This document shows, one piece after another, positions 25,531 through 60,893 of a stretch of 64,000 bases of DNA. Made by a program: the position numbers and the translations under genes. The notes under the pieces were generated by a model. The model was given only the letters and a program-made list of their open reading frames with translations, was not told where the DNA came from and did not search any database. This stretch comes from Nautilus pompilius. Lineage: Eukaryota > Mollusca > Cephalopoda > Nautilida > Nautilidae. Every line of letters begins with the position of its first letter. The first letter of the stretch is position 1. The stretch is from contig JACATO010001117.1 of the NCBI GenBank assembly GCA_018389105.1, positions 310,001-374,000 of the forward strand. The letters run 5' to 3'.

Positions 25531-25618
25531 GATTAAAGAAAACGAAATGATTTCGAAGAACCTGAAGATTTTTCAAAGTGACGGCGAATCGCCATAAAAT
25601 AAATAGATTGCTAACACT

Positions 25619-27681: not shown

Positions 27682-27702
27682 GACACACACACACACACAC
27701 AC
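27682..27702 (+). repeat. (CA)n microsatellite
   Basis: About 10 CA units. Confidence 0.9.
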
Positions 27703-27997: not shown

Positions 27998-28008
27998 GCC
28001 GCCATTTT
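27998..28008 (-). promoter_or_regulatory. YY1-type motif
   Basis: GCCGCCATTTT on + is AAAATGGCGGC on minus, the consensus YY1 site that often marks transcription starts in animals. No coding exon found downstream on this strand. Confidence 0.35.
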
Positions 28009-28601
28009 GACGCTCGCTGCCTCCTCTCTAGAACAGCCGACTCCGTCACTGACCGCCGGCCGCACGCTCAACTTGTTATACTGTTGGAATAAACAGTTTG
28101 TTCAGCTTTAATTTCCAATTTTTTTCCAAAAATAGTCTTAAGAACCCCCCCCAACCAACTGTCTGAAAACAAACTAGAGAACTATTTTTTCTTGCGTAGT
28201 TACACACTCATGAAAACCCGACTACCAAATTACAGATTTCCTTGCCCTATATGGGTTCATTGTTTCTGGTATTTTCCAGACTTCCCCGCAGTTGTTACCG
28301 CGACTCATAATATTAGTTGATTCTATTTATCTCTTGCTGTTCTTGTTGTTTTTATTATTTTTGTGCTCTGTAACCCGAATCAAATGTTGTTTTTGGACAA
28401 TTTTTCACTCAAATGTAAACAGAAAGTAATCGATGTCCTTCGGTCGCTGCTGATCAGGATTCCAGTATTATTTTTAACGTCTTTGTATTAAAACTAATTA
28501 ATTTGTTTCCATTAGATTAACAGGGGGGGGAGAAAGAAAGAGGTTGGTCGGCGGCATTCTCCCGCCTCTGCCCGGTGCATAGAAATCGCCATCGCCCTAG
28601 T

Positions 28602-28615
28602 GTCTCCATGGCAAC
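28602..28615 (-). promoter_or_regulatory. RFX X-box-like 14-mer, copy 1
   Basis: On the minus strand it reads GTTGCCATGGAGAC, close to the RFX X-box that drives ciliary genes. The identical 14-mer occurs at 32177-32190 on +. Lies in CpG-rich DNA about 14 kb upstream of the CEP83 start codon. Confidence 0.45.
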
Positions 28616-29204
28616 GCGGAGAGATAAATACGTAAATGAGTGTCGCAGGAAGTGCTGTAATGTGAACTGTCGTTTTGCGGCAGTCGCAAAACATTAATAG
28701 GTTTTCCAGAGTTTATTCAGTGAAATGCCGGGCGGATAGAGTCTGACCCGCGCCAGGTTTACACAGTCTGATCTCAAACAAGTGCGGTCAGCGGAGGCAG
28801 GAAGCGATGCGGAGCTGCAGGTGAGATAAGGTAAACAGCCGTCATGTGCTCATGGCTCCGCTCACAGCCGTCCGTCCGTCCGTCAGTGCCCGCCCACCAC
28901 CGAGTGTCTGTATCTGTTATTGTTGCACAGCTAAATAGTCGGCTTGGAAGGGAAAACAAGAAAGAAAACCGCCCACAGCAGTTTCCGTCAGGTGCGAATC
29001 GCAGACTATAACTGTCTGTATCTGTCTCACTTATGGTGTTATACACCGAGCAGATCGGATGGCGTGAACGGCGAGGAATATCCACCAGCCATTAATTTAT
29101 ATTAATTGTTTCGGGCTGAGATCACCACGGTGATGGGTAGCTTTAATCTGCCTAATTTATTCAGTTTGTTGATAATTAAATGATTAAAATAAACTAAGAC
29201 ACAC

Positions 29205-29612
29205 ACAAAGAGAGAGAGAGATGGAGGGGGGAGAGAGAGAGATGGAGGGGGGGGGAGAGAGAGAGAGAGAGAGATGGAGGGGGAGAGATGGAGAGAGAGG
29301 GGGGAGAGAAAGAGAGAGAGATGGAGAAGAAGGGGGAGAGAATAGAGAGATGGAGAGATGGCTGGGGAGAGAGAGAGGGGGAGAGAGGAAGAGAGAAAGA
29401 GAGAGATGGAGGGGGAGAGATGGAGAGAGAGATGGGGGGGAGAGAGATGGAGAGAGAGGGGGGAGAGAAAGAGAGCGAGAGATGGAGGGGGAGAGATGGA
29501 GAGAGAGATGGAGAGAGAGGGGGAGAGGAGAGAGATGGAGAGAGAGGGGGCGAGAGAGATGGAGAGAGAGAGGGGGGCGAGAGACAGCTAGAGAGAGAGA
29601 GATGGAGAGAGG
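29205..29612 (+). repeat. Long polypurine (GA/GGGGGA) low-complexity tract
   Basis: About 400 nt of degenerate GAGAGATGGAGGGGG-type units, nearly all purine on +. It creates long spurious open frames on both strands. Long purine mirror-type tracts can form triplex DNA. Confidence 0.9.
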
Positions 29613-29725
29613 AACTCTCTTTCTCCAGAAATCCTGGCTCATTTGATTACTTTCATTATTTATTTACTCCTAAAGCTTAAAAAAGAATCCGTCCGGTTAG
29701 GTGGGGGGGTGTGCTTGGAAACAGC

Positions 29726-29766
29726 TCTCTCTCTCTCTCTCTCATATAGTGTGTGTGTGTGTGTGT
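29726..29766 (+). repeat. (CT)n and (GT)n microsatellites
   Basis: About 8 CT units, then a short spacer, then about 8 GT units. Confidence 0.85.
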
Positions 29767-30198
29767 AAATCTGTGGATAATTTTAGAATTCATTATTTTA
29801 CTTTAGATTCGTTCATCCACTCACTTCTAATATATTTTTATTAATTTTGATTTTAAATTCTTGGGGAAAAATTATTTAAGTTGCGCGTTCGGAAAAGAAG
29901 ATGGCGCAACCTGGTTGCTTGTTCTCCAGCCCGACAAACCGTCTGCTCGATTACCCGCCAGAGGGCCGTGTTGTTTTCGTTTCTTCTCCTCCTCCCACCT
30001 GCCTTTCGTACTTAGAGAGAAAGGAAATGGCTGTATGCGAGCGGGCTCTGGCGTAAAGAAAGGCAGCTTTTAAAGTATATACAAAGAAGAATAGAAATAA
30101 ATGAAATCTCCTAGACTGCGCTGTGTGTGTGTGGGGGGGGCATAATTTTGAAAGGTGTGCATCAGTGATAGTTTGGGGAACTCATTGTCACGGGTTAA

Positions 30199-30206
30199 TG
30201 ACGTCA
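30199..30206. promoter_or_regulatory. Isolated CRE palindrome
   Basis: Perfect TGACGTCA in CpG-rich DNA, just upstream of the (GC)8 tract. No adjacent gene recognised. Confidence 0.4.
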
Positions 30207-30256
30207 CCACTCAGCATCAAGCGAAGAACTCTGTTATTCTTGAAAGTTTTGAGTTG

Positions 30257-30272
30257 GCGCGCGCGCGCGCGC
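30257..30272. repeat. (GC)8 dinucleotide tract
   Basis: Sixteen alternating G and C, a potential Z-DNA former. Its survival implies little CpG methylation decay here. Confidence 0.9.
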
Positions 30273-30772
30273 TAAGCACCCTGGGAATTGCACGGCGACT
30301 ACAGTATTTGTGGACATGAATACTACAGATTGTCGGCAACACATGGTTTATTTATGCCATTTTATAACAATGGAAATACACGTTACCTTATTAGTTCATA
30401 CACTTGCATTTGTAGTAGTATAGTAAGTGCACGTGTCGAAAGTTCATACTGGCAAATAGAGGACTTGCCTCATCAGAGAGAGAAGAAGATCACAGCTGCA
30501 CCCGATAAGAAACTATCTTCAGAACAATGATGCGGAAATCAATAAACAGATAAAAGTCAAAAGCAGTATTCATAATTTGAACCTTGTTCTTATCGTCGCG
30601 GATATCTTAGCTCCGGGTTCGGTTTACGTGGAGTTTTTATTAAATAGAAATTCGAAAGACGGTACGGGACAATGAGTGTCTGAAAGAGAGAGAGAAGAAA
30701 GGGTTGCGATAAGAAAGCATTCAGTTAAATCGACACTTGTTAGAAACATTGGAATTGGGAAGTAGATTCCAA

Positions 30773-30783
30773 AAAATGGCGGC
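30773..30783 (+). promoter_or_regulatory. YY1-type motif
   Basis: AAAATGGCGGC on +, the YY1 consensus. No coding exon found downstream on this strand. Confidence 0.35.
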
Positions 30784-31578
30784 AGTTAGAAATAAGGGTT
30801 AATTGTCTTTTTTCGGTCTTATTTTCAAGTTGTGATTATTTAACCAGTAGTTTTAGAATTTCCGTAATCTTTTAAAATTATCATCGTTATTATTTATCAA
30901 AACAGCAACAACAAAAAAAAACTACAGTTAGAAATGGTAAAGTAAATAAAGTGAAACTAATATCATGGCGATAACAAGAAGATGTATGGGATGACTGGGT
31001 GATTGAATATCAAAGGCCATGTATCCAGACCTGAAAATATTTTCCGTATTCTTACAATTTCTGTAGTTTCCGGTTTTAAAAAAGGATCGCATAGCTCTGA
31101 CGGGAAAGAGGGGACGACATCTAGCGATGTATATTGTTATTATTCTGTTGTCTCTTGTGCTAGTGTTCTTCAAACTTACCTTTGCGCTCGCGCTGTCCGT
31201 CGTCCTTTGACTAATGCCAGTGTGAGAAGTCCCCAGCACAGCGACACCTGTCGACTGATGCTCTCTCTCTATCTCTGCCGGCTCGAGAACATTGGAAAAT
31301 GGATTTGTCCTGGTCGCATATAAATAAACCTTCAAGACACGGATTCTTCGGCAAAATCGATATTCACAGATAATCTATGCGCAATTTCCCCCCCTTTTTT
31401 TGTTCTTTCTCGCATTTATATAATATACCGTATTCTGTTAGCCGTTCGTGATCCCTTGTTTGTCGCGGTGGGCCGACGAGGGGCCCGTGCGCTTATCCCC
31501 TCACGTCCGTCCGCCCGCTCCCCTTGGGCCCATCTGCCGCAGAACTAATCTTCAGAATCGTCACCATAAAATCGAACA

Positions 31579-31579
<1 letters not shown>

Positions 31580-31626
<47 letters not shown>
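31580..31626 (+). repeat. (AAT)n microsatellite
   Basis: About 15 TAA/AAT units. An (AAAC)n tract follows at about 31857-31886. Confidence 0.95.
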
Positions 31627-32176
31627 TAAACACATGTGGGAAAACTTCAACAAGTGGGTCCAGTAACCCCCCCTCCGAGTTTTATTAACCCCTCTCCCAC
31701 CAAAAAACGTTACAAATTAGCTCCGTACTATCGAAGTCCGTGGATGTCAGTTTCGATTCCTTCCAGCCAGCAGATCCATAGATCCAAATCAAAGCCTGAG
31801 CTGTACTCGCTTATTGGATCGTTAACGGAAAGTTACAATATTAAATGAATAATTAAAAAAACAAACAAACAAACAAACAAACAAAGCATTAAAGCAGTAA
31901 CGCGGTTTGTGGTCAAAAATTCCGGTTGAAGCGAAGCAGGAAGTGACTGTAAAGTGAAAGTATTCCTTCGATTTTTCTCTTTAATCGGCTAATTCATTGC
32001 GCGAGAACCCCTCAGATATGGATGTTTCTCTTACTTCATCCTTGATAAGCCAAAAAGTTTCCTTTATCTCTTTCAAACACACTTTTTTTTCTTTTAAAGG
32101 GGGGGGGGTGTTGTCCTTTTCTCGAGTCGTCCATCGCCATTTCTCTCGCTAACTCTTAAGAAGAAGAGTGGCTTAC

Positions 32177-32190
32177 GTTGCCATGGAGAC
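32177..32190 (+). promoter_or_regulatory. RFX X-box-like 14-mer, copy 2
   Basis: GTTGCCATGGAGAC, identical to the minus-strand motif at 28602-28615 and inverted relative to it, 3.56 kb away. The surroundings are CpG-rich (GACGCGCGGCTCGCG just downstream). Confidence 0.45.
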
Positions 32191-34329
32191 ATATCGAATC
32201 GACGCGCGGCTCGCGAATGTTTTCTTAGACGAGGGTCTTGGCGGTGACGTGAAGAGGGCGCTCTGAAGACGACGGAATAATTGCACGACTTCTTCCACGC
32301 TTCCTCCTGTTCTTCACAATCCGCTCGCAGATTGTCTTTCTATTCTGTAGCGGCTGCATCATACAAACCAATTAAACTAAGGAAACCAGAAGATGACAGG
32401 CAAAGAAAACTTCCTTTGATTTAGTCCCCCCCCTAATCCATTCCTTTATATCTAGAAAAAAGTGCGTTACTCGGAATATCGGGGCAAATTAGCAATATTC
32501 CATGTCATTAGTACTTTCCAACAACAGATTCGAGGCACATAGTTACCACAATCTGGATTACGTTTGTGTGTTCTCAACAATCCAATTTTATCAATAGTTC
32601 TATTTTAAAAATATAACAGAAATACTCTCTTTTTTTGGTATTATTTTCCGTTAAATTTCTAAAAAAAGGGTAGTATAAAGTCCCTATAACTTATCAACAG
32701 AGGTCCATAATACACGCTTAAAAAATAGAATTACACCAATCGCAAGCCGTTTTGGTCTTCAACTGTAGGTTCGCACTTTCCGTTTGTTTGTTTGTTTTAG
32801 TTTTTAGAAAAAATTATTCTTAGCAACCAAAAAACGGTGGCAATGCGAGGGAAGCGAGCCACGTGACGTTATTAAGTATTCTGTCGTGGGGGGGGCGGGC
32901 CCCTCAAATATTCTTTAAAATGGTCGCTTTGCCGCAATTCTGAGAAATGAGCTGCTAAGTCAGTGCGTTTGAAACAGATCTCCTTAAATGCCCACGTGTA
33001 CTGTTCCATATGGAAGCGGAGGCGTATCTATGGACCCTCGTCTGCCACGACGTGGTCTCAAGCAGGTCCAGTGCTTAGGATCTGCTGCCATGAAAAATCC
33101 AGCAAGAGGAAGAACCTCCCAATCTACAATTTGATTTGAGTCAAAACCCGCTCCACTCATCTGAACTCGAGCAATATCGCTTCCTTTTTAGAAAGATGGC
33201 GAATACAAAGGGCAGCCTATCCGATGCATTCGAATTGCCAAGTTTACCTGGACAGGTGTAAATCCTTGACCATAGCGGAAATCAGGGGTCCGAAATAGGT
33301 TCGCGAAAAGTGAAACCGCGTCGGTTGGAATGGGTATTTACCTAGCCCAATCTCATGATATTACTAAACCTAGGCTTTCTGACTCTCCTACTAGGTGCGG
33401 AAGCACGGAACACTCGGGGTTTGCTTCTTCGAGAAATATTCTCGCCTTTTTTTGGGGGGGTTAAAGAGACTGGTTCCAGAGTATTTAGTTGGGAGAGCAA
33501 AACTAAACGGAAGTGGAAGCAGAGTTGGTGGAAAGGTGAACTGAATTCTTTTACTCGGAGACTGGGAGAAATAAGTGCGTCAAGTGATGGGCTCTCAGAG
33601 AGAATGCTAAAGGTTAGCGACTAAAAGAACTTTGAGCGACAAGGGTGAATGATTCTACAGAAAAAAAAAAGTCTTGATTTTCTGGTAACTAAGGATAAAC
33701 CGGAAATTACAGCATTAGAAAACACTTCATCTTGAAGTGATCTGGATGAGGAACAAGTAGCGCGAGTATCTGTGGTATTCCATACTATCATTCGTGCAAA
33801 AGCCTAGGTCAGTTCAGACACATCCAGCTCCTCTTCGCACTAGATCCGATTTGATTCCAAAGATGCTCTAGGAGAGTTTATGACTAAACCAGCAAGGGAC
33901 TCAATCACAACTCCCTTGAGAAATTGCATAACTGCTGCCGTACGATGAGATGTGGTGTTGTCCCCTGAAAACTGGCGGGTAGTCATCAAAACCTAAAAAT
34001 AACGACAGATTTAGACTGTTTTCAATAATGTCTGTTAGAATTTACGGTTCCGGATCAGTTATGAGACACACCCCACCCACCACAAGTAAGTCACAGCTTA
34101 TCCGTCTCCTACGTCGCCAGGTTCTCGTTCGACCATCTATAAAGTGCAGAGGGATCTACTTTCACCGGACCCTCTTCAATGCCCTCAAATTCCACCAGAA
34201 ACATTAATTGGACTAATAAATTTAGCTGCCGCCCATCTGATATCGTTGGACCTTTCACAGGGGCAACGAGCGTCGCAGCCACTACTATTTAGTGTTCCGG
34301 TGGGCATTCATTGGCTCATTTCGTAAATA

Positions 34330-34960
34330 GTCGCCCTGTTCTCTTCCAGGGACGCCCTCTACTGCCCTATCAACACCGACGGAGGGCAGCTCGCCAAATT
34401 GCCTTCCTACACGCATCTTTCGTTCGGGGTTATCTGCCATCTTTTCCCATGTAGCGTCTCAACGCCATCAGTCTTTTTTCTCTCTCTCTGTGTGTGGTGC
34501 CAGTGTAAAGTTCGTGTATGTGTGTTTATCTCCGAGGAGAAGGGAGTGGAGTAGGCCGAAGCCGTGTGTGGAGCAAGCTCCTGGTGTAGGCCTAAAGGGG
34601 CCGTGTTGAGGCGCCGAGGCGACCCATGTTGGTTGAAGCCGAAACTTCGAATTGGGAGTGATCGCTTCCCCAGCCAAAAACCAATCTTGGGGAAAAGGGC
34701 CTCAACACGTCAAGTCCGAAAACCGGTCCCTAAGTGCCTAACCTTTCCAGCCAGACAGGCAGGCCAAAGGCAAAAGGCGACCCTCGCCTCCACTCTTTTC
34801 AGGTAGAGGGCTTTCGGTCTACAATAGCCACAGAGTACTCGCCGCCCCACCCTCCAGGGTCGAACCCAAGTGACCTCGCCCAAAGGGCGTGGTCCTTGGC
34901 CGTTAGAAGGTTAATGGCACGATCCGCCGTAGCCTCGCCTTGATCTTAGACAAGCAACCC
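34330..34960. other. GC-rich segment of unknown origin
   Basis: A GC-rich, CpG-rich block differing from its AT-rich right flank (35 kb onward). Open frames on both strands (34468-34677 minus, 34564-34806 plus) have no recognisable domain. The composition would fit the 5' part of a retroposon or an exon of a non-coding transcript; neither is shown. Confidence 0.3.
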
Positions 34961-36579
34961 CTCCCAGAATTTATCCTGCTCAGCGTACACCTACAAGCAA
35001 CAACATAAAAGATGAGATAATTTCACTCAACCTCAAAGAATGACAAAGATCCTTTATTGCTGCAACATTTGGTTAATATAAAGGAAACATCTGGCGGTTT
35101 AACTCAGGTCGAGATGATCGTATTTGCTAGCGTTTTACCTAAGAAAATAATGGGGTAAATGGCGAAGCTGGAAAAGTGAATGTATAGAGATATCGTGTAG
35201 GGGGGATATGGTTTTATTAATCGTTAGAAAGAAGATAAAACAGAGAATCCTGATAAATATTCACCCTAAGTCGTTATAACAAACAATGACCTTTAGGGAG
35301 GGAGCTTCCCAGAAAATGCATTGTATTTCAGGTACGTTAAATCTCTGATCGCATACCTAAAAACTAATTATTAAATATATTTAATATAATTAAAATGAAA
35401 TAATAAAAAAAGACACGTTTATCAGAGTGGAGCTAACGCTGAGTCAGCGCTAAGACATGCTAATAAGATTTATTATATTATATAATGTATGACAACCACC
35501 CGATAGTTCTGCCCTTCTTGTCAGAAGAGTGTCATGGCGGTTGCCTTTTAAACACTGAATTATAAGATTCGGTGTTATCACGGTTCTGAATGAACCGGAT
35601 CACTTCTCGTTGATGGATATCTGTAAACCTTTCTTCTTTTTTCCATCACTTGATCGAGTGCTATGAACCGTTATGGAAGTATCAGATCGAATCTCATTTT
35701 TCAATTATTGCAGCTACTTCATCATTTATTCTTTTCATTTTATCTCCAACGCACTGGAATGTTTGCTGGCCGTGGGCCATCCCAGCCCATATAATGGAGA
35801 CCCCCCCCACTTTTTCCCCTGGAAAAGTTGACGAATAAAGACGACGCCAAGTTATTATATCCCATTCATTTTCTCTGAATGGAAGGATTTACTCCTAGAC
35901 ATTTTCGGAGAAATTTATCATGACATACAATCATAAACCGACACTTCCCAGATGGCGACCCTATTACTCAAGGAAGAATTTTCGATATCGATTTCCCCTC
36001 CCCCCCCACCCAACAGCCATTCTTTTTTATTTCTCTAATAATCAGTTTTGAGGAAAAAGGATACAGCAAATGGCAGGATGTTGAAGAACGTGTACTATCG
36101 AATGATCGATAACAGCTCCACAGCCAGATTTATTATATTCGAAAATGTCAAGAGTCTACGCGAATATCTCTCCATTGTAATATACAACTCCCATGATTGA
36201 TTACTCGCCCAAGGATACGTCTAATTCTGCTTGTATCGATTACTTTGCTTCATTATCTCGTAGTCCTTTCTGGCTAACAACATTTCTTTCAAAACACTAA
36301 TATTAAAAGTAAAAAGCCGTCCTCCACTCCCCCCACCCCCCCGGGACATCTCCTATTATTTGCTCATTCGCCGCATGGAGTAATGAAAGCCTTATCACGA
36401 CTTCGTGCTGCGCGCAGATAAAAAAATCACCCGAGATTCCCAGTCACCAGTAAAGCGGAAGAATAGCCGGGGTTCGGTTCGGGTTCTGTTCTTCTCTTGC
36501 AAACAAAAACCGAATTCGGTTGTGGGGGGGGGGGGTTGTTGAAAAATTTATAATTTCGTGAACTTCCCATGCTCCTTCG

Positions 36580-36840
36580 CGGCGCGGCGGACATTTTCTT
36601 CCGGGAAGGTTCTTGCCTCATGACGTATCATTCCGCACGACCGACAGCACCCCCGGTCCCTTAACGGGGCCGCGCTCCCCCATCTTTTTTTTTGCCTATT
36701 GTAAATATTAGCGCATTTTAAAACTTACCAACAGCTGTAAGGGCGACCCCCCCCCCCGGGGGGCTCCTCCCGAGTTACTGGGAGTAGCATCGTTGCGGTA
36801 AGCGGCCCGACTAGACGAGCTCTCGCGAGAAGCCCCCTAC
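36580..36840. promoter_or_regulatory. Orphan promoter-like patch
   Basis: CpG-rich block with the palindrome TCTCGCGAGA (36821-36830), a known animal promoter motif, an ETS-like TTCCGGGAA near 36598 and a CRE-like ATGACGTAT near 36620. It sits at the edge where CpG density falls towards TDG. No coding exon with a start was found on either side, so the transcript, if any, is unknown. Confidence 0.4.
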
Positions 36841-36922
36841 AGCTCTGTTAACAACAACAACAACAAAAAAAGAAGAGAACACATTGTTATTCCTTTTTTT
36901 CTCTCTTTCTTTACAATCAACG

Positions 36923-36928
36923 TTTATT
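36923..36928 (-). terminator. Candidate distal poly(A) signal of TDG
   Basis: TTTATT on + is AATAAA on minus. It lies at the boundary between CpG-poor and CpG-rich DNA, about 5.2 kb beyond the TDG stop. A nearer signal at 42107-42112 would give a short 3' UTR instead. Confidence 0.35.
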
Positions 36929-37016
36929 TCAGACAGTAGAAAGAAACTGCATAAAAATAAGGTTGTTGGAACACAAAACAAAAAACAAAACAAGTATCAA
37001 GCAGTAAGTCTAAAAA

Positions 37017-42180: not shown

Positions 42181-45100
42181 TCAGGTAGGGAAGGGCATGT
42201 ATCCATAAGGGGGCTGAGGGTAGGCTGCGCAGTACTGCGACATCGCCGCGGTCATCGCTGCTGAGTTGGGAGTGGCCTGTGGCGAGAGCCCATCTTTGTG
42301 AAGGTTGTGGAATATTGCTGGTGGATGCGCGGCAAAAGTGCCTGCAGTGCAATCAAAGTTCTGGCCAGGCATCCGGCCATAATCCTCAGGGTTGTAGAAT
42401 GGCTCCTGTTTTACCCCATGGGCCTGGGGTTGGATAAAGCAACTCTGGGATGAGAAGTCGAAGGAGGAGGGTGGCAGTGGCTGGTTGCAGGTTGGCCAGG
42501 CATTCTGCGGGGGTTTCTGGTGCTTGTTGTTCTGGTTCTCTCGCTTCTCTGACTTGTCCGTCTTCACCTTCAGCTCCAAGTCTGGAAAACACACCTCAGC
42601 CTCGTTCAGGACCTTCTGGTCCCCCCGCAGATAGTCCCTTAGTTTCTTAAGGGCCACGTAGAATGGCACTTTGTCCACGGCTCGCGGCAGCTGGGAGCAA
42701 CGAGCGCTGGATGAGGGCATCACGAACACCATCTAGAAAACAAAACGTGGAGCAAACCATCACTATGGCGAGACAGAAGTATCAAGTGGGGATCACGGGC
42801 AAAGTCCTCTAACCCTTATTTTGGACATAACCACCTTGAAGGATCCCACCCGATTACACCTAATCTGCATCTATCGCAGAATCATCTACATGCGTATATA
42901 AATAAAACAATGACTGCGACAGAGAAGACCCGTCGTGTTACATCTTCCGCTGATCTGACCGCGTGAGACCAAAATAAAGATTCAATGGGGTCTTGAAGTG
43001 ACATAAAGCAAATCTATTCAAACAGATAGGAAATTCTGGTGGTGAAACCATCAAATATGACAACAACAACAACGAAGTAGGGAGTTAGTTCGAACGTTTC
43101 CCGTCACCCTTATATTCCTAGTAAATGGGGTACAAAGAAATGACATTTTAGTAATTTAGTTGGTGCCAAGGACAACTTTTTTGTGGACAATGATGTTAGT
43201 TGGGTTAATACTACTGGGTGATGAGAAATGTCTGACCTCCACTTCCTGCAAATAATGCATCACCAAGAACTTTCCATTTCTACCCTGACAGCAACACTTT
43301 GAAGGTCACTGAATTGTGGTCGTCAGCCAGGGGAAGACCAAACAAAAAACCACCAGACACGGTCATGGCAGGTGCTCCTTAGAAACTGAGGAGGACCCAA
43401 AACTGCAACAGTGGACACTGAACAGATAGCTGTGGTCCAGGTAGAGCCAGGAAGCAGAAGACTATGCACAAACTACTGGGCGGCCTAGTGCCGCATTTAG
43501 AAAACAATGCAAACCTTAGTTTCCATGCTACAATCTTCAGCTAATTTATATAGATCAAAGTTTTTTTTTTTTTTTACATTAATAATTTGCAACATCAGAA
43601 AACTGCACTCAAATTGTGTTCCGCTGGATGGTTTAAAAAAAACAACAACAACCATTCATTTAATTATCAATAATTGCTGAAAACTGCTAACCCCAAAGAC
43701 CAGTTTTTACATGCCAAAGCCACACTAACAGATACTCTATTGAAGTCATTCCAAGCTGCAGTCACAGGGAATACGATGAACTCACATGCCAGCAACTTTC
43801 ACAGAGTGGAAAACCAGTGCCGATCTATAAAACACAAATATAGATGAGGAAACGAAACTTACGGTGTCTGTTCCATCTAATGGCTCTGGTTGCTTTCCAA
43901 AAATAAAATGTTTGTTTCCACTGAAAATTTCATAAATACCTAAAAGAGAGAAAGATCAGGAAATAATCTAACATATCCAGCTGAATAAAAAAACACAAAA
44001 GAAAAAAAAGTAAGTAAATTAATAATCAGGATTCTTTCTTTCTTTGATTTTGTCTTAAACCAAACACATGTACGAGAATGGTGTTTTTAATTTTTAGAAG
44101 AAAATCTCATTTATTTTCTGTCAGACAAAAAAAAAAAAAAAAATAGAAAGGGAGACAACAAATGAAATACAACAAGTTTTTTAAACAACAAAAAATTTCT
44201 TTACCTTTCCCATTAAAAACTGCAATTTTAGGATGATAAAACTTCAGCTTTTCCAAAAGGATCTTGCCACCGTCTTGAATTTCCTTCCTTAAAAATTATT
44301 AGTTTTTATTCATTAAAATATATTATAGTTTAAGGGACATAAGTGAATAGCTCAAAGTTAAAGTGAAAACAATAATACTTATTCGAGCATATGTAAATAT
44401 AATAATAACTTCACTTATTACTAACTTTGTTAAATCACCACTTCCTTTGGTTGTCCGGTTCACAATATTGGTAAAGCCAATTCCATGCTTTAAAAGCTTG
44501 TAGTCATCGTAAGCTGTCATTGGCTCTGCGATAATCTTAGACAGGTGGAGGCACTTCCCTGAAAGAAAGGCCACATTATCCAATATACTGTAGCAAAGTG
44601 GAGTTTTCCATTAATTCCTCATACTTACATACAGAAATACGAATTTCAATCAGTACATATTTATGACATATTGTCATCTTAATAATAATAATAATTATTA
44701 TTATTACTATTTATAATAGCTCAGGATACATAATACTAGTGACTGAAGTATTAACAATGTAAAAGCTTTTTTTTTACATAGATAAATCAAGGGAGACCAA
44801 AGAGTTAATTTTAAGGATTATCTCCCTTTCTTTTCATTCAGCAAATCACCTATAGTAATAAAGAAAAAGGTTAAACATTTTATCAAAGTCTGTGGCTGAG
44901 AATATACAAATAACTCACAGAAATGATTTCCCGGCCCAGCATAGTGATGCCCAACATAAGCTGCAGTCAAACCTGGGTTAAATCCAATCTGAGAGAAGGA
45001 AATTAAAAGGCTAAATAGATAAATACATTAAAAAACAAAACAAGTTAAATAATATCTCCTGTTTTTTTTTTTTAAAATAAACTACTCAAATCTCACCTCA

Positions 45101-47306
45101 ATAAAAACCTGATTATTTCTTGGAAAGTTCTCTTTTGGTCGTTTAGAAAAGATTGTTGTTTGGTAAATGTTAATGGGAATCTCTTGTTATAAAGTGTATT
45201 GAGTAGTTTATGAAGAGTACTGTAGAAGTGACCTAGAATACGGGGTTTTAAAATCATTCTCAATCAGTTTGTACATATTTTGTACTGGTGGCAGGCTGGT
45301 ATACCTTTATTGTTAGTATTTCCATTTCCAAAATGCTAGACCCAACCTTCATACTGGCACACCTCATTGCTCAGCATACAGCAATTCTGCTGCCTCACAT
45401 AATTCATTTTTAGAGCTGACATTCCAAGGAATCAAATCACAGATTGCTTGCAAGTTTTTCATAGGGGTCATTTTGCAGCAAGTTGCGGTGCTGTCACCTG
45501 AAAGTAAGCAATTATTCCTTCTCCCACCCAAAGCATTGTGCATTAAATCACAAATATTTTCTAAGCAGCCATTTTCTTTGAAAAAATCAGGTGCTCAAGA
45601 CTTTTCAAAGATACAGACATGAGACTTACTACAACAATGTCCAGGTTTGGGGCCAGGTGGTCAGGTAGTGTTCTCTGCATCACCTCTTCTTCTGTCATTC
45701 CATTAAACCGATCTCTCTTCTTCTTTACCACCATGTGTTCCGTAATCTTTTCTTGTTTCACTTTCTTCAGAGGAACCAACATGGTGGATGTTGCCTCACT
45801 ACATGGGGAATAAAAAAACAAAACAAAACACACTATGTCCAGTTTGTGTCACCCCCTTTTTTTCTAGAAATAGTTTTTTAAGTATAAAAAACCCCAACAA
45901 AGTAATTCTTGTGAAAAAAATGTTTCCCCAGAAGCTACAAGCCACGAAACCCTGCCATGGAGGACTAGCTAGCTGTTAAGAGCTTACTTTGTTATTACTT
46001 GTGTCAGATTCACACATCAGCTCTCTATTTCTCATTGGTCTGAAAAATGATTTAATAGTTTTGTCTGTGTTTCAATGAGATTACTTTACATGTGTCTGAC
46101 AACGGCTAGCTGGCTGACCGATAGAATGTGGAGAGCCACCAGTAGGTAGTAATGCAGGTTTATCACCTTAAGATAAATGGAAACAAGTTTCCACACAAAA
46201 GCCTAGACCTATACATTCACCACAGTTACCTACCCTTATACTATAGCCACAACCCTTCCCAATACTTGTGGAGTTTTCTCTTTTTCTTGTAAAAAATGCG
46301 AGAAAAATACTATTTATCCAATGCTTGCGTAAAACCAAGCAGATTGACATTTTAAAAATCTAATAAAAAAATTAGCTGATGACCCTGATTACAGAGGGCA
46401 AGATAAATGAAAGTAAAAACGTAAGACGGAAGTAATTATGGAATAAGAGGATCAAGTTTGTTATTCAGGTGGAGACTCAACATTTGCTGGAGAGGTTTTT
46501 CTAGTCTTTAGAAATAAAACCAAATGGAAAAAGGAAAGAAGAGAAGCTCAGTTGGTTTATTACAAAGAAACTCCCACCCCCAAAAGTGGGGGGTGGAGAG
46601 ACTTGGTTGCTTTTGTGTGTGTTGCTGTAGTTGTCGTCATTCTTCGTGGCCAAAAAGCTGTAACAATAGCAGAACTCCCGTGTGGATTGGTGGTGGCTTG
46701 CATCGTGCCATCCACATCCTTGCCCACGACCCTGCGCTCCATTGGTAAGGGCCACACGCTGCTGAAAACCCCTGCCCTCATTTTTTAGACACGAGAGAAA
46801 ACCCACGTGGCCAACCAGACTAGTCTACCACCGGATCAGCTGAGATAGAAAGAAATGCTTATTCATGCACTTTTAATTAATAATAATAAACAATTGGAGG
46901 CACCAAATACTTGAGTTTGAAAACAACAACAGCAAAATTCCAAAACAAGAGAGATTCAAACATGGCGGGTACCGAAAAACATACTACAATAAATCTGAGC
47001 AAACACAAATCCACTTACTTCTCATCTTCTGGTTCGGTTTTAATTTTTCGCTTTTTCAGCGATTTGTCCACTACGGATTTCTCGGGATTCATTGGTAAAG
47101 GGACAGGTGCCGTTCCACATGCTGATGTAGGAAGTGCAAAGGGATAACTACATAAATGAAGAGAGCAGGCTGTTGTCAACATGTTTTGGTATAAAAGCAA
47201 CATGGATGCCAAATTTCACAACAATAAGTAACAAAGGAAAATAAGAGAAATTAGCTTATAGGTTTTTACTTCTCAGATGCACTATAGTTGTCCCTTCCAC
47301 AAGGAT
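42181..47306 (-). CDS. TDG: G/T mismatch-specific thymine DNA glycosylase, eight coding exons (5' end unresolved)
   Basis: Nuclear base-excision enzyme that removes T or U opposite G, and in vertebrates 5-formyl- and 5-carboxyl-cytosine. Exons in transcript order: 47306-47270, 47147-47019, 45798-45630, 44988-44919, 44558-44426, 44287-44205, 43939-43863, 42732-42181. All have GT/AG and consistent phase, coding about 416 residues (human 410). The catalytic domain starts near residue 85 ([13 protein letters not shown]). The motif [20 protein letters not shown] near 114 keeps the catalytic asparagine of the human GINPG motif. [13 protein letters not shown] and KIAVFNGK follow. [15 protein letters not shown] near 238 is the substrate-recognition loop. 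The first exon (37 nt, [12 protein letters not shown]) is supported only by frame and splice sites. The C-terminal tail is Pro/Gln/Tyr-rich (ending YGYMPFPT) and unlike the vertebrate tail, but carries VKQE, a SUMO consensus like the vertebrate VKEE. Stop TGA is at 42181-42183. The gene is divergent from SMIM4-UQCC6. Confidence 0.94.
43140..43500. mobile_element. SINE-like fragment in a TDG intron
   Basis: A core at 43217-43281 (GGTGATGAGAAATGTCTGA ... CATCACCAA) aligns with 56082-56145 (GGTGATGGGAAATGCCTGA ... CATTACCAA) over about 60 nt. The second copy belongs to an element with a tRNA-like head, so this is probably a relative or headless copy. The ends are estimates. Confidence 0.45.
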
Positions 47307-52839: not shown

Positions 52840-53399
52840 GCGTTTCGTAACTATCCAACTAATCCGTTTGGAGACAAGTTGTCCCCTCTCTCTCTCCTCC
52901 ATCTTGTCTGAAATCGCTTGACGGCGATGGTAGAGGGAGAGAGAGAGAGATGAGCCAAACTCCTCACCGCACAACAATGCGGCTGGCTGACAGACAGCGC
53001 GTGCTCTCCCTCCTGGCATCGCCAACCGCGGCAGTTAAGATAAACAAGTAAACAAACATTCGCCACATTAAGCGCTAAACCGACTTCTGATCGTCTCAGG
53101 GGTGGGGTGGGGGATTCCGATAAAAATCTTCGCTATTACACACACACACACGTGTGTATGTATGTGTGTTCAAATTTACACTCGCCACGGGGTTCGATCT
53201 ACGCCATCAGCAAACAATGGATAGCGAAATTCGGCAACGGCCAGGAGAGGGAACCGTTCGCAGCATCAGATGAAGTCCTCCTCCTCCTCCTCCTCCTGTT
53301 TAACGCAGTCGGTCCCAGCCATAATATCTGGTACGAAATGAATCATCATCACCACCACCATCGCCGCGCTATCTCTGACATTCTGCCGGCAACACTCGA

Positions 53400-54468
53400 A
53401 GGCAAGATCTGTAAACAGGTAGGCTGTTGAAATCAAGCCGTAGCTGGCAGATATTTCCTTTTAAATAAATCAATATGGCACGAGATGAAATGGTCGGGGC
53501 TGTGCGCTATATACAGCCGGGCGGCGGTCTTATGTAAATAGAAGCTCGCAGCACGAACTGTCCACGTTCTTGTGCACCGGAGGATACCTCCAGCAGCGGG
53601 GGCCCGCGGGCCCCGGGACCGCCGCCGCCGCTGCTTTCTTTTTTCCTGTCCCCTTTTCAAATATAAAATGAAATATAAACATTGACACAGACTGGCGACC
53701 GATCGACCGACCGACCGACCGACCCGGCGCCGTTCGCTACCATCCGTCGGTCGGCGGGACTCGAACCGAGGCGGCGGCCGCCCCCACCCCCCACCAGCCA
53801 AGACAACACCGACATGCAGACAGACAGACAGACAACGAGCAGCAGCAGCAGCAGCCGGGCCAGACAGACAGAGAGGGAGCCAGCCTCCCTGGCCGAGCCC
53901 TGCCTGAAGCGAGATATCGACGCACACCAGCCGCGAGCACCTGACCGCAGGCAGGCAGCCAGCCAGCCAGCCTGCCTCGCGCGCCCAACCCTCACCCACA
54001 CGGGCCATCCACTCCACAAATACCGACCCCCGGCCTCGCTCCACACACACCACGGCCTATTAACACCTATCTTAATCACTCAGAAACACTTAAAATACTG
54101 CAACAGTCCGATTTTCTACCTTTTGTTGCACTCCTTCTGCTTTGTTCTTCGAAACCAATGAAACGAAGTAAGTCGTCGCTGATTGGCTCGCCCGCCCGGC
54201 CCGTCCAATCAGGACTCCGGAACACTCGCCGGAAGTGACCCCGGTCGGTTCAAGGTGACAAATATGGCAGCTTCCATGTAGGTGCGATGCGGACGACTCA
54301 CGGTTTTCGCCGAACGCAAACACTCCACACCTAATTTCGTTTTTCAGAGCGGTGTTTTTGTCCGATCCCCCACCCCCCCCACCCCCAACCCCACCCACCA
54401 CCCTAACCCCCCCGTCCGGGGCTCGGTGCCGCCGGAGCTCGGGGAGGGGCCCAGCCCGACCGGTGATA
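53400..54468. promoter_or_regulatory. CpG island, presumed shared promoter of TDG (-) and SMIM4-UQCC6 (+)
   Basis: GC- and CpG-rich block ending at the SMIM4 start codon. The proximal part has CCAAT boxes at 54155-54159 and 54205-54209, an inverted one (ATTGG) at 54182-54186, an ETS/GABP (NRF-2) site CCGGAAGTG at 54229-54237 and a YY1-like AAATATGGCAG at 54260-54270. This combination is usual at starts of nuclear genes for mitochondrial proteins. Simple repeats (GACC)n and (GACA)n lie at 53700-53840. Long open frames here on both strands (53433-54161) are Arg/Pro/Cys-rich composition artefacts. Use by TDG is inferred from position and CpG content only. Confidence 0.6.
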
Positions 54469-56628
54469 ATGTCGATGTGGAGCAGCAGCAGCCGCCGTAA
54501 GTTGGGAGCGTTGATGAACTTGTGGCCCGGAAAGAAGACGTTTGGATTATATCGATTTTTACCGATATTTTTTATCTTGGGAGCCGCTGTTGAGTTCTCT
54601 ATGATCAAATGGCATGTGGGAGAAGTCAACTTCTGTAAGTAGCCATGGGTGAACGGCCGACAGACAGACAGACAGACGGACCGACCCCTGCACCAGCCGC
54701 CTCTCGCCTAATTAAAAGTTAAAACAAAAGCTTCGCTAATTAATCTTTAAATGATTGTAATTATTGTTCTTTAAAAACAAGTTATGTGTGTGTGTGTGCG
54801 TGTGTTCAGCAGGATAGCGCGGCGGCCGTGATATTTGTTTATTATTATTATTATTATTAAAAGATTGGGTAAATTTGACCCGTGGTTTGGTGACTGGAGA
54901 ATAACGGGATCTCCGAAGCTTAACATTATGGTTGTTATTTCCGTGAAGTGATCCCTGTTTGTTCCAGCCTCAGCAGAATTACTCTTGGAGGACTGAGCGG
55001 TGTGCGGCTCTTATTCAAGAGATGTTATAAATACGTGTGCAACTGCCCTGCAAAGTGCTATGGCTACTCAGCCAAGTTCTGAAAGGGCTTTGTAGCATCT
55101 TTTCTATAGATGAAAAGAAAGGGAAACTCTATAGGCCTTTGTTCTGCAAACAAAACTTGAAAACATCCATAGAAAATCGACTAGGTTTTTAATTGCTTTA
55201 CTTTACTTAACCTTTATTATTTTTGTATGAGATATTTATCTTCTTGATCACAACTGTGTACGAGGCTTTTGTTATTTTTCTAAATTTGTATTTAGTTTTT
55301 TTTTTTAAAGACATTTTTATTGTTGTAGCTGAGGTACTTTTGAGTTTATATTAGCCACTCAGGAATGAAGCAAAAAATAAAACTGCTGCTTTGTTTAAGG
55401 CTTGCTACTTCACCATTGGTTGCTGCTTTATGGAATTAGTCAAATTATTTTTACATGCTGATAAATTACTCAAGGAATGTCTAACTTAAAACTTCACAGT
55501 TGAGAAAAATATATTATCTTTTGTTTTCTGCTTTCCACATTTTCTTAATTCCAGTAACATATATATCATAGTATTGATTGCAGTGGTTTTTTTCAGGCTA
55601 TGACTTATGTGGAAATAGTTTGTAATGTTTACTGTTTTTTTTTTTTTTTTAATGCATTTTAAGAATATTAATTTTACGTACTACTAACAAAGTCAGATGC
55701 AAAGATTCCTGGCTTTTAAACTACTTAAAGACTATAAGCAGAGTGCTGTTAGATGTTGGATAGTGTGGTTGTAAACCTGCTATCAGTGATATGTAGTTTG
55801 GGTGTTTCCCATAACTTTATTAGCAGTAACATAACTAACTAATGAAATTATGTTTTATGAATCTTTGTTTTCATCATCAGGGCTTAGTCCTGAAGGTAGA
55901 TGCTTTGATGGTGCAGTGGGCTAAATTGTTGGTGCAAAACACTACATTAAAACTTAGTTGATGGGTTCAAGGCTGGCTTAAGCCACTTGTAATGCACTCA
56001 GAAGTAAACCCTAAATACAGTGACGGGGAAAGATCACTAAGATGTAGGTTCATTATTGGTTCTGTTACAGCTAATAAGGTGATGGGAAATGCCTGAAATA
56101 ACTCTATTTTCCTGAAAGTACATTACCAATAATGTTTAGTTCTTATACTGTTATTGGTTGGGTGGGAGTAGAGGATACACCCATACAGAAACTAGCAAAC
56201 ATGGGAAGCACCTATGTACCTACATGGAGCTTGTATAGCCTGCTTCTAACTTATAATCTCTTTGCCATTCCCCAATGTACAGAGTCAAAATACCCCAGCC
56301 ATTTATCTCCTTTCACAAGGGATTCATTAATTCATCCATGTACTCGTATTATTTCATGGTTTTCCCCAATTTTTTTAAATAATATGTGAAAAAGTGATTG
56401 ATCTCGTCGTCATAACTACAAGATTTTTATTAGGCATTTAAATTAAAAGAACCAATCACAGATGTTAATATTGAGCAGCTTATGACACTTTAAATTCCAG
56501 TTAATATTGCTGAACTCAAACCCTGTTTTCCTTTTGCAGACAGTGTGTATAAGAAAAAACAAGCTGAACGAATAGCTCTCAAGGACCATGAAATGAATGC
56601 CAGACTGGCAGCAACACGTGATGTGTAA
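54469..56628 (+). CDS. UQCC5: Complex III assembly factor SMIM4/UQCC5 (Drosophila Sloth1 orthologue), first cistron
   Basis: Small single-pass inner-mitochondrial-membrane protein needed for assembly of ubiquinol-cytochrome c reductase (complex III). Exons 54469-54634 and 56540-56628 join at T|AC (Tyr), giving 84 residues with stop TAA 56626-56628; human SMIM4 is about 70 aa. Diagnostic block: PGKKTFGLYRFLPIFFILGA, one membrane segment at about residues 29-45, then VEFSMIKWHVGEVNFYSVYK. Human SMIM4, as I recall it, has PGKQRFGIYRFLPFFFVLGG and MEWIMIKVRVGQETFYDVYR. The start was chosen for A at -3; a second in-frame ATG follows two codons later. The frame is open upstream but proline-rich and non-conserved. 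A 5-codon uORF (54264-54281) and an overlapping out-of-frame ORF (54282-54500) precede it. The same second exon continues into UQCC6 after 48 nt. Confidence 0.95.
55895..56390 (+). mobile_element. tRNA-derived SINE in the SMIM4 intron
   Basis: Polymerase III-type box A TGGTGCAGTGG (55909-55919) and box B GGTTCAAGGC (55964-55973) are about 45 nt apart, as in a tRNA head. Downstream, 56082-56145 shares a core with 43217-43281. The start and end are approximate. Confidence 0.65.
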
Positions 56629-56676
56629 TTTGTTGTTCTCACTAAAATAGTTAAAAACTTAAATCAGGACCTGAGG

Positions 56677-59600
56677 ATGCCTGCAGGAACAACTTGGAGC
56701 CAATATTTGAAGTTTATTGCTACAGCCATATTTTCAATGTTTGCTGGATCTCAAACTGTTCATAGGTTATATCAACCTCTTAATGTAAGTCAACATATGG
56801 AAACTCTGCAGTTTTTTAAAACTTGTCAGCTCACTCAACATAGTCACTTTTATTGTGTCTTACTGTAAGTTCCTGAATTCCCATCTTGTTTGGCTTTGTC
56901 AGGTAATTGGCCCATGAAGGGTAAATAAAATCATGTAGTTCCAAGCCATGCCAGTCATTTCCATAATTATTGTTTGGAAAGTAATGATTGTTCAAATGTG
57001 AAAGCATAATTTCACATGTGATCATCAGCAACCAAAGTGGGATGAATAAGATATTGGGATCATGAACTAGATGCAATCATTAGAATAAAGTGTGTGAAGA
57101 ACCCTTATCTTTCTAATAAAGGAGAAAATTTTGAAAACCTACCAGTATTAATTAATTATCTTAATCTGCTGCAATGACTACTCAGAAATAAAGTGAAGTT
57201 GATGGTTATTCTCTAGATCTAATTCTGCTAAGTTTTCTATTGGAGTAGTTGCTAAAAATTTTCACCGGCTAGTTAAATTACAAAAGATTGTGGTGATACA
57301 TTTTTTTGGCCCCTTTTAAATGAAGACAAATATCCTGAATATGTTGTCTATACCATTTACTTTCTGAGCCATGAACTATTCTGTATGAAGTACTGCTATT
57401 GTTTTGGTGTCATGCAGAAATCTCTTCAAGCAAAACTACCCTAGTGAGGTAGCATAGTGCTGCCATTTGCTACCAGAGAGTGTTACCTGATCTCCAGCAC
57501 AATGGGCCCAACACTTCTGATTTGGGTAAGGAAATTTCTACCAGACCCCTTCAGATGTGAGAGAAAGCCCACACTACTGGTTGGTAAAGAAGAGCAAGAA
57601 GAAACCATGTTTGGGAGATACAACCTCAAACTGAGCCAACACCTCGACTGGGAGTTGAACTCAGGGAGGAGGGGTCAGCTTTGGCAGTCTAGCCACAGGG
57701 CTCCCTGTTTGAAGTGTGTAGGAGACAATCTGAAACTAGGGTTAAAGTGTCTAAATGCAGGAATTATGCTTTAAAACTGAAACATGCAAAGTATTCATTT
57801 TAATTTTGAGCCCTAAGTTGGCCCCCTAAAGAAACCTTTTTGAATTATCATTACTATACTGAAAAAGTTCTCTCAGTGAATCAAACACCAAGCAACTATT
57901 TTAAAGGAGTAAGGATGGCAGTTTGGTAGGCCAGTGGTAAAGAGCCCATGTTAGATTCCCAAAGGGGATTGACTTGGCATGATTTCTCTCTCTCACCATT
58001 TGGTTGGTTAATTCAGCCACATTTGAATATGTCATGCAGGGGTATAGGACTTGGTAGATATTAGTGGAAGTTTGGTAAGACTGCTTAGAAGTGTTTCAGA
58101 AATTAAGGATTTAGAATACTCTGAGAGGTTAAAAACTTGCCTGGTTTTGTTCATAGACTCATAGGAAGAAATCTGAAAGAAGTATTTGAAAGCTTTGAGA
58201 TTTTGAATGTTGCTTACTAACAAATGTTTTCAGTTGTCAACAGTTACAAGTAGCAGAGAACAATCATCATTTACTGTGAGGTTTTGTAAATTAAAATATT
58301 TATGGAATTGTGAATGAGTGAACTGTTGTTAACTGACTGTCATCTACTTCAAGGAATACTCCCTATTTAACAGATTTTCCTTAAAATGCCAGCCACACCA
58401 CAAGTTGCTTATTTGTTAGGTTGGCTCCCTAATTCCTGAACTTGAACAAATTCTACTGGAGTAACCTGTGATTGCATAATTAGACAGGGCTAAATATATT
58501 AACAAATATCTGACTATATACAATATAATCATTGCACCATTTAATCACGGTGCTTGGATTGTAGGACTGAAATTCCACAATTATTAATTTAGTGACATAG
58601 TTCGAAATTTTTCCAGTTGGTGGGAGTGCAAAACATTGACATTTTTTGAATGCTAGATACATGAACTATGCATCAGTAAACTTCTCTAAACATTTTGTTT
58701 TATTCAAACAAGTCATTCAAGTTTTTGCCTTTTAGGTAATATAATGACATAATGAACAATCGTGAAGTTAAAAACACAGAAAGAGCCTAAAATTCTAAAA
58801 GTCTGTTTTCTTACAAAGCAAAGTTCCTCAACAGCTGTGCTGATGACATCAGCCTGATGTAACATTATTCCGACAAGCATGTGTGGTCCAATTGCATGCA
58901 TGCACATAGCTAGCAACACATTTCCAGCTTCTCTTGGTGATCCAATGACTTGCTCAGATAAATAAGTTATCCACATATGATCTTGGTATGCCATTTAGTA
59001 GTATTAGCGCCCTAATTACTTACATGCATATGCCAAAGTATTGCTTTTTTGGGTAATGTGTTACCCTTGCAGTTCATATTTCCATTTAAAATTTGTAAGT
59101 TATACACTGGTTTTACTTAATTACTCAGCTGCAACATTAATTGGATATTCTAGTTTTTCAGGTAACCGATTCTATAAAGTGGAACAAATCTCAGTAGTGC
59201 TAAGTAAATTACAATAATGGAGATTTTTAAGATCCTTAAATTTCCTCTTTTTATCGCAAATATCTGGTGAGTGGGATGGGCAGCCCCACTACAGTTACAT
59301 CACTGAGTCAAAGGTCTTCCTAAAACTATCCTCAACCATTAAAAGGATACTAATGCACTCATAGGGTTAACATATTGCTGTTTATTATTTTTATATTAAT
59401 AAAATTCTTATAGAATATGAATAAAATGTTTATTATATGGATCTGCTGGTGCTTCCCACTTTATTTTTTTAAAATATAAGTACAAACAGCATTGCCAAGT
59501 TTTTTGCATTCTTGACAGGAGAGCTTCAGCATCACCCAACCGCAGTTTAGATCTTTTCAATGAAAATACCTTAAAGTTAATCATAAAAGTAGTTTATTAA

Positions 59601-59977
59601 GTGGGAGGAGAAGATGAGTAATTTAAGACTGTTCATTAACAGTTTAGCTTCTTCCACACAACCAGCTGCATTGTATGAACTAGGTTGGTTTATCGTGTTA
59701 CCTCCCAAATATAAACTTTACTAAGAATTAGCGGCATTGTTTTTCTGGGAGAAAGTTTGTTAAAAGCAGAATGCAAGCCTGAGCTTGGTCATTTTTCTGG
59801 CCTTTATTTTCATAGACTCTCATCAGCGATTTTGTTTGCTGTTAGGTCAGAGAAGAAGCTTTTTATATTTGTTTTTCTTTTTTTTTTTTCTTGTAGGACA
59901 TGGAAGATGTAATACAATTAGAGAGAGAAAAATTACATCACCGCTTGAAAAACGCACCAACTGGTTCAGCTCGGTAA
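56677..59977 (+). CDS. UQCC6: Complex III assembly factor UQCC6/C12orf73/Brawnin (Drosophila Sloth2 orthologue), second cistron
   Basis: Tiny single-pass inner-membrane protein required for complex III assembly. Exons 56677-56784 and 59897-59977 join in phase 0, giving 62 residues (human 71). MPAGTTWSQYLKFIATAIFS then MFAGSQTVHRLYQPL matches human MPAGVPMSTYLKMFAASLLA and MCAGAEVVHRYYRPD; the membrane segment covers about residues 10-27. The charged tail DMEDVIQLEREKLHHRLKN faces the far side. The ATG lies in the same exon as the end of SMIM4, 48 nt after its stop, with A at -3. I see no separate promoter, so it is probably the second cistron of one mRNA. The acceptor at 59897 has a long T tract. 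The final CGG TAA overlaps a consensus donor GTAAGC, so an alternative 3' end is possible. Confidence 0.92.
57430..57725 (-). mobile_element. tRNA-derived SINE in the UQCC6 intron
   Basis: On the minus strand, a box A-like TGGCTAGACTG is followed by box B-like GAGTTCAACTC, then a unique body up to about 57430. The spacing fits a tRNA-derived head. Inserted opposite to the host gene. Confidence 0.6.
57915..57990 (+). mobile_element. Possible tRNA-like SINE head
   Basis: GGTAGGCCAGTGGTAAAG resembles box A and TGTTAGATTCCC resembles a decayed box B, at about tRNA spacing. No clear body follows. Confidence 0.3.
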
Positions 59978-60261
59978 GCTGCGCTGCTGGCTTCTTGCAT
60001 CATTATAACTATGAAGATAACTTGGAGATATTGTTATCATTGAAATCCTTAAAAGAAATTTGTTGTTACAGGTATGAAGCAGGGGATTTAAAGAACATAA
60101 TATCCGTTAGTGTTGAATAAATTGAGGAGTATTTGTCACAATTTTGTTGGTAGTTTAATCTGTTTGGAAAATGCAGCCCTGAGCTGTGTGAAAGAGATAG
60201 ACCAGAAATCTGTTTTATTCTCTCGTATTCTTGCTATTATCTACAGATTTACAAATTACTT

Positions 60262-60267
60262 AATAAA
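60262..60267 (+). terminator. Candidate poly(A) signal of the SMIM4-UQCC6 transcript
   Basis: AATAAA about 285 nt after the UQCC6 stop; another follows near 60853. Confidence 0.5.
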
Positions 60268-60893
60268 GAAAATGGATGTCTTGCAATATATGAATACATG
60301 ACATGTAGTATGTAAGAATGTGATTCAAGTCTCTTAGAGTTTGCTTTAAGTACCGATGATGTGGTGGCTGGTCTGGTCTATTCACAGTTCTATTGATTAT
60401 TTCAGATAATTTTTGCATTTATTCCAATTTAAAATCTTATTTTAGATTTTATCGTCTGGCTTATTTCTTTTCAGAAATCTTGCTGCTTGTAGCATTGAGT
60501 TACGTCTGCTTCCCAAACTAAGATCAGTTCATAGCTATACATTCCAGTAGCTGCCTGTCAGCACAATAACCGCTCAGTTCTCATTTCTGCGACACTAATT
60601 TAGAAATCCCAAGGTTGTCATTCATAGTGATTAATTAGTGTTGTTACTTGTGGAAAGTCATTCAAATGTTCTCTGTGACAAGAGTTAAATTAGAAAATTT
60701 TGCTAGAGAGTGCTCTAGAAAATGTTTGAGGTATGTGATGACAACTTTTTTCCATTAAACATATACCCAACTTATATCGAGTAGGTGTCTTAGCATGGCT
60801 TGTATAAATATACCCACCACATTCATATTGTTTAGCCAAATACTTTTAATTAAATAAAACCAATCAAGCATATTTCTGTACCGTACTTTAGTA

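What the first reader, a model, noticed from the sequence alone, without database searches (positions are those of the whole stretch)
54469..59977. SMIM4/UQCC5 and UQCC6/Brawnin encoded as one bicistronic unit
Seen: the SMIM4 stop (56626-56628) and UQCC6 ATG (56677) lie in one exon 48 nt apart, same strand, no CpG island or promoter motif between them, both starts with A at -3. Known: Drosophila sloth1/sloth2, the orthologues, are translated from one transcript and both act in complex III. Inference: this two-cistron mRNA is ancestral in bilaterians and conserved here in a probable mollusc. An 84-codon first ORF and a short gap fit re-initiation; out-of-frame ATGs inside the first ORF make simple leaky scanning less likely.
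Basis: partly seen in the sequence, partly recalled or inferred. Interest (0 to 1): 0.92.

Follow-up and report, generated by a model that had tools for sequence, protein, structure and literature searches.

The report
Two-protein mRNA for complex III
A probable mollusc gene encodes two small mitochondrial proteins that help build respiratory complex III, one after the other in what looks like a single messenger RNA; the same arrangement is already known from flies, sea squirts, lampreys and choanoflagellates, so this is a new example of a known kind.

Summary
The window encodes SMIM4/UQCC5 (84 aa, PF15114, E 3e-32) and UQCC6/Brawnin (62 aa, PF14990, E 1e-17). The SMIM4 stop and UQCC6 start lie 48 nt apart in one predicted exon. 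CpG o/e is 0.93 around the SMIM4 start and 0.12 around the UQCC6 start, so one promoter is the best reading. A bicistronic mRNA is likely (about 0.85) but not shown: no RNA evidence was available.

It is not new in kind. Bosch et al. 2022 (PMC9681215) report this architecture in fly and, as candidates, in sea squirt, lamprey and a choanoflagellate.

Leaky scanning, perhaps helped by short internal ORFs, is likelier.

Added here: TDG lies upstream in divergent orientation, and TDG and UQCC6 are neighbours in human and listed side by side in chicken. The UQCC6 intron after codon 36 matches mammals; the SMIM4 phase-1 intron recurs in 7 of 20 homologues. So in jawed vertebrates UQCC6 probably stayed in place and SMIM4 left.

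The parts
54153..54271 (+). Probable core promoter before SMIM4: two CCAAT boxes (54153-54161 +, 54180-54188 -), GABP/NRF-2-like CCGGAAGTG (54229-54237), YY1-like AATATGGCAGC (54261-54271)
   Evidence: motif names recalled. CCGGAAGTG is the only match in the window, but 15 of 100 shuffles also hold one or more. The transcription start is not known.
53001..55000 (.). CpG-rich stretch upstream of and over SMIM4 exon 1, on the side facing TDG
   Evidence: half-kilobase windows starting 53001-54751 have CpG o/e 0.76-1.18 (8 of 8)
54469..54634 (+). SMIM4/UQCC5 coding exon 1 (55 codons + 1 base)
54635..56539 (+). Intron 1, phase 1, after codons NF; same position seen by read-through in 7 of 20 SMIM4 homologues
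56540..56784 (+). Shared exon of 245 nt: end of SMIM4 (56540-56628), gap (56629-56676), start of UQCC6 (56677-56784)
56629..56676 (+). Intercistronic gap, 48 nt, GC 31%, no CpG, no in-frame stop
56785..59896 (+). Intron 2, phase 0, after UQCC6 codon 36, the same codon as in mammalian UQCC6
59897..59977 (+). UQCC6 coding exon 2 with stop 59975-59977; AATAAA at 60116 and 60262 follow
42184..45848 (-). Pieces of TDG (thymine DNA glycosylase), divergent from SMIM4-UQCC6; its 5' end was not found
   Evidence: Joined pieces match TDG chains in the PDB at 2.6e-56; the same pieces scanned singly against Pfam gave no glycosylase hit

Best explanation
One transcription unit, starting in a CpG-rich region near 54.2 kb that faces the divergent gene TDG, is spliced into a three-exon mRNA whose middle exon holds the end of SMIM4 (UQCC5) and the start of UQCC6 (Brawnin). 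Ribosomes make SMIM4 from its AUG. A minority pass it by leaky scanning, some perhaps through short out-of-frame ORFs inside SMIM4 that allow re-initiation, and make UQCC6. Making both from one mRNA keeps in proportion two proteins that work in one early complex III assembly complex. Shown here: ORFs, families, splice signals, lack of a CpG-rich start at UQCC6, TDG in divergent orientation, conserved intron positions. Inferred: the mRNA itself (about 0.85), the translation of both, the leaky-scanning route (about 0.55 given the mRNA), the function in this animal.
For: Both families clear. Shared exon with its acceptor ranked 2 of 377 and its donor 7 of 349. No poly(A) signal in the shared exon. 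CpG o/e: 8 of 8 half-kilobase windows starting 53001-54751 at 0.76 or more, 24 of 24 starting 55001-60751 at 0.48 or less; 0.93 centred on the SMIM4 ATG, 0.12 on the UQCC6 ATG. The only GABP-like site of the window is before SMIM4. The fly mRNA is proven by cDNA and RT-PCR, and fly reporters support leaky scanning (PMC9681215). Human SMIM4 and C12ORF73 depend on each other and sit in one complex with UQCC1 and UQCC2 (PMC8719881, passages); fly sloth2 overexpression is lethal unless sloth1 is co-expressed (PMC9681215, passage).
Against: No RNA or peptide evidence. CpG-poor promoters exist, and one CCAAT match lies 219 bases before the UQCC6 ATG. The SMIM4 donor scores modestly, rank 33 of 349. 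AATAAA sites in intron 2 (56924, 57084, 57115, 57187) could give SMIM4 transcripts without full UQCC6. For leaky scanning: the SMIM4 ATG has A at -3, four in-frame and five out-of-frame ATGs lie in the way, and out-of-frame ATGs are not depleted.
Confidence: 0.72

Rival explanations
1. Same bicistronic mRNA, but UQCC6 is reached mainly by re-initiation after the full SMIM4 ORF.
For: The second AUG follows the stop by only 48 nt; nine further ATGs lie between the two starts, which makes pure scanning harder; coupled termination-reinitiation is reported for five human transcripts with overlapping ORFs (PMC5972666, passage).
Against: Permissive first ORFs are usually under 30 codons in mammals, and re-initiation after long ORFs is presumably very rare (PMC5972666); here 84 codons. 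In the fly, impairing sloth1 translation raises downstream output.
Confidence: 0.18
2. Two overlapping transcription units: UQCC6 has its own start in intron 1 or the shared exon.
For: Not excluded by sequence; one CCAAT match at 56450-56458.
Against: CpG o/e 0.12 around the UQCC6 start against 0.93 at SMIM4; no TATAWAAR between 47757 and 59388; no GABP-like match there.
Confidence: 0.08
3. SMIM4 and UQCC6 are made from different isoforms of one unit, with intronic polyadenylation in intron 2 for SMIM4.
For: AATAAA at 56924, 57084, 57115 and 57187.
Against: Such motifs are expected in AT-rich introns; a UQCC6 mRNA from the same promoter would still carry SMIM4 upstream. The three AGs in the gap score -4.5 to -9.2, ranks 152-307 of 377, so an acceptor that would drop SMIM4 is unlikely.
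Confidence: 0.07
4. Stop-codon readthrough makes a SMIM4-UQCC6 fusion.
For: The ORFs are in frame, with one stop codon between them and 16 sense codons in the gap.
Against: This happens by chance in roughly one case in seven (my estimate). In the fly the two ORFs are in different frames.
Confidence: 0.02

Closest known systems
Drosophila sloth1/sloth2 (CG32736/CG42308), PMC9681215
   Same: Orthologous pair, same order, one transcript, short gap, both act on complex III
   Different: Fly gap is 5 nt and the ORFs are in different frames; here 48 nt and in frame, with two introns placed at conserved positions. In the fly sloth1 has the weaker Kozak context; here neither start is clearly stronger.
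Linked sloth1/sloth2 orthologues of sea squirt, lamprey and the choanoflagellate Salpingoeca urceolata (PMC9681215)
   Same: Described as a similar bicistronic gene architecture
   Different: Their sequences are in a supplement that I could not read, so introns and neighbours were not compared.
Human UQCC6 (C12orf73) beside TDG at 12q23.3 (PMC11714271, passage)
   Same: UQCC6 next to TDG; mammalian UQCC6 proteins break after codon 36, as the intron here
   Different: Human SMIM4 is on chromosome 3 (PMC9681215), so the pair is split.

Membership tests
SMIM4/UQCC5 | PF15114 (UPF0640) domain | tested here: met
   E 3.4e-32, 110.6 bits, cut-off 27
UQCC6/Brawnin | PF14990 (DUF4516) domain, MPAG start | tested here: met
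   E 1e-17, 64 bits, cut-off 27; 118 of 120 listed homologues contain MPAG
sloth1/sloth2-type bicistronic gene | SMIM4 then UQCC6, same strand, in one exon, short gap | tested here: met
   48-nt gap in a predicted exon of 245 nt
sloth1/sloth2-type bicistronic gene | Single mRNA with both ORFs | not testable with these tools
   No RNA data; CpG evidence is indirect
sloth1/sloth2-type bicistronic gene | First start in weaker context than the second (leaky scanning) | tested here: inconclusive
   Both have A at -3 and lack G at +4
sloth1/sloth2-type bicistronic gene | The two proteins are distant paralogues (proposed in PMC9681215) | tested here: inconclusive
   No BLASTP alignment; hhalign probability 0.3%, but the SMIM4 profile is shallow (Neff 1.76)
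sloth1/sloth2-type bicistronic gene | Both proteins act in complex III assembly | not testable with these tools
   Known in fly and human (PMC9681215, PMC8719881); needs experiment here

The most novel reading that the evidence does not exclude
The pair is a fixed three-exon, two-cistron mRNA at least as old as bilaterians. Its intron positions (SMIM4 after NF, phase 1; UQCC6 after codon 36, phase 0) and its place beside a divergent TDG have survived in a spiralian. In jawed vertebrates SMIM4 left this promoter while UQCC6 and TDG stayed. The bicistron would be an ancient device for fixing the ratio of two complex III assembly partners.
Probability: 0.45. Interest if true: 0.5.

Novelty: new member of a known kind. 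Interest (0 to 1): 0.36.

Why it matters
Bicistronic mRNAs encoding two partners of one complex are relatively rare in animals. A spiralian example with conserved introns and an ancient neighbour gene suggests that this one is old and stable, predicts how it broke up in jawed vertebrates (SMIM4 moved, UQCC6 stayed with TDG), and warns that a 62-codon second ORF is easy to miss in annotation.

Tried and rejected
Searches that found nothing: SMIM4 profile in viral contigs (27 pattern matches, 0 relatives) and genome contigs (106 pattern matches, 0 relatives); UQCC6 as a single sequence in the protein database; solved relatives of either protein (SMIM4 alone hit Cox5c at E 0.11, which did not recur with the profile); RNA families (0 matches) and tRNAs.

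Rejected: (1) a structured IRES in the shared exon: it folds no better than shuffles (z +1.17; 179 of 200 shuffles fold at least as well). (2) An acceptor between the ORFs giving a UQCC6-only mRNA. (3) Depletion of out-of-frame ATGs as a sign of scanning: not seen. Some length match arises by chance in 18% of trials; with equal contig number above one, in 0.1%. Suggestive only; 120 of 395 UQCC6 hits were listed.

Full report
What is there. The + strand encodes two small proteins. SMIM4/UQCC5 (84 aa) is spliced from 54469-54634 and 56540-56628; UQCC6/Brawnin (62 aa) from 56677-56784 and 59897-59977. Both are clear family members: PF15114 at 3.4e-32 and PF14990 at 1e-17. The SMIM4 stop and UQCC6 start lie 48 nt apart in a predicted exon of 245 nt. 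On a splice matrix recalled by me, the two acceptors rank 2 and 1 of 377 AGs; the UQCC6 donor ranks 7 and the SMIM4 donor 33 of 349 GTs. The three AGs in the gap rank 152-307. The shared exon has no poly(A) signal, and the two ORFs are in frame, 303 nt between the ATGs.

One promoter or two. Methylated gene bodies lose CpG while unmethylated promoters keep it (established knowledge). In 1-kb bins CpG o/e is low over the genes and 0.53-1.22 over 22-37 kb, where I identified no gene, a mosaic as known from invertebrates. In half-kilobase windows, 8 of 8 starting at 53001-54751 have o/e of 0.76 or more and 24 of 24 starting at 55001-60751 have 0.48 or less. Centred on the SMIM4 ATG it is 0.93, on the UQCC6 ATG 0.12. 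The only CCGGAAGTG of the window (GABP/NRF-2-like, recalled) is at 54229, though 15 of 100 shuffles also hold one. Two CCAAT boxes and a YY1-like element lie near it. A CCAAT match at 56450 lies in intron 1; the window total, 14, is near the 9.4 expected. One promoter before SMIM4 is the best reading, not proof. AATAAA sites in intron 2 would allow shorter SMIM4 transcripts.

How the second protein is made. Both starts have A at -3 and lack G at +4. Four in-frame and five out-of-frame ATGs lie between the two starts; the latter open ORFs of 2-18 codons that end before the UQCC6 ATG and are not depleted against synonymous shuffles (5 found, mean 3.4, 98% of 5000 shuffles have 5 or fewer). A review (PMC5972666, passages) says permissive ORFs are usually under 30 codons in mammals, that distance is needed, and that re-initiation after long ORFs is presumably very rare, though five human transcripts with overlapping ORFs use coupled termination-reinitiation. 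In the fly, reporters support leaky scanning (PMC9681215, section 5). I favour leaky scanning, partly through the short internal ORFs, at about 0.55 given the mRNA. The shared exon shows no unusual folding. Readthrough is possible in frame but unlikely.

Why together. In human cells loss of SMIM4 lowers C12ORF73 and the reverse, and C12ORF73 forms a complex with UQCC1, UQCC2 and SMIM4; antibodies to each enrich newly made cytochrome b (PMC8719881, passages). In the fly, ubiquitous sloth2 overexpression is lethal unless sloth1 is co-expressed (PMC9681215, passage). A common mRNA that fixes the ratio fits; for this animal it is inference.

How old. Bosch et al. already report the architecture in fly, sea squirt, lamprey and a choanoflagellate and propose unlinking towards jawed vertebrates. 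This window adds a probable mollusc: the best SMIM4 hit of 20 is Octopus vulgaris; the next hit with an organism name is the annelid Lamellibrachia. Three observations go further. First, TDG lies in divergent orientation (pieces in 42184-45848; joined, they match TDG structures at 2.6e-56; singly, Pfam found no glycosylase). Its 5' end was not found, so a shared promoter is inference. [quoted passage not shown] The human orientation is not taken from any call. Second, the UQCC6 intron lies after codon 36, phase 0. Of 120 listed homologues, 42 have PDL, always ending at codon 36; 11 of these 42 diverge or end exactly there, six reading VS as into an intron. The named ones among the 42 are mammals and one frog. 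The insect-like rows run through without a break, so the intron is not universal. Third, the SMIM4 intron after NF, phase 1, shows as NFCK read-through in 7 of 20 homologues; 13 read NFY. So UQCC6 most likely stayed beside TDG in jawed vertebrates and SMIM4 moved. I saw no statement of this in the papers I opened; my searches were sloth1+sloth2, SMIM4+C12orf73, UQCC5+UQCC6, brawnin+bicistronic, C12orf73+TDG and bicistronic+smORF+mollusc, open-licence papers only.

Weak or contrary. The proposed paralogy of the two proteins got no support here, with a shallow profile. The UQCC6 list came from a bait alignment with recalled and invented rows. The window's own genome could not be searched: nine requests were unanswered.

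Verdict. Real, correctly described and ordinary in kind: a new lineage for a known bicistronic gene, with useful synteny and intron evidence and a corrected view of the translation mechanism.

Noticed in passing
window 3581-13377, minus strand: Exons of a long coiled-coil protein that reads like CEP83 (identification recalled, no call confirms it; Pfam gave only weak coiled-coil hits for the three pieces tested).
   Followed up: partly
window 22000-37000: CpG o/e 0.49-1.22 in 1-kb bins, flanked by CpG-poor stretches; simple repeats, no gene identified. Two AAAATGGCGGC matches, at 27998-28008 (-) and 30773-30783 (+), lie inside.
   Followed up: no
window 54264, 54276, 54287: Three upstream ATGs with ORFs of 5, 1 and 15 codons before SMIM4; they matter only if transcription starts above them.
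   Followed up: no
window 56677-56868: If intron 2 is retained, UQCC6 reads on to a 63-aa variant with another C-terminus.
   Followed up: no
SMIM4 protein, residues 22-79: Weak similarity to a Cox5c chain (9f5x_2F, E 0.11), not recovered by the profile.
   Followed up: partly
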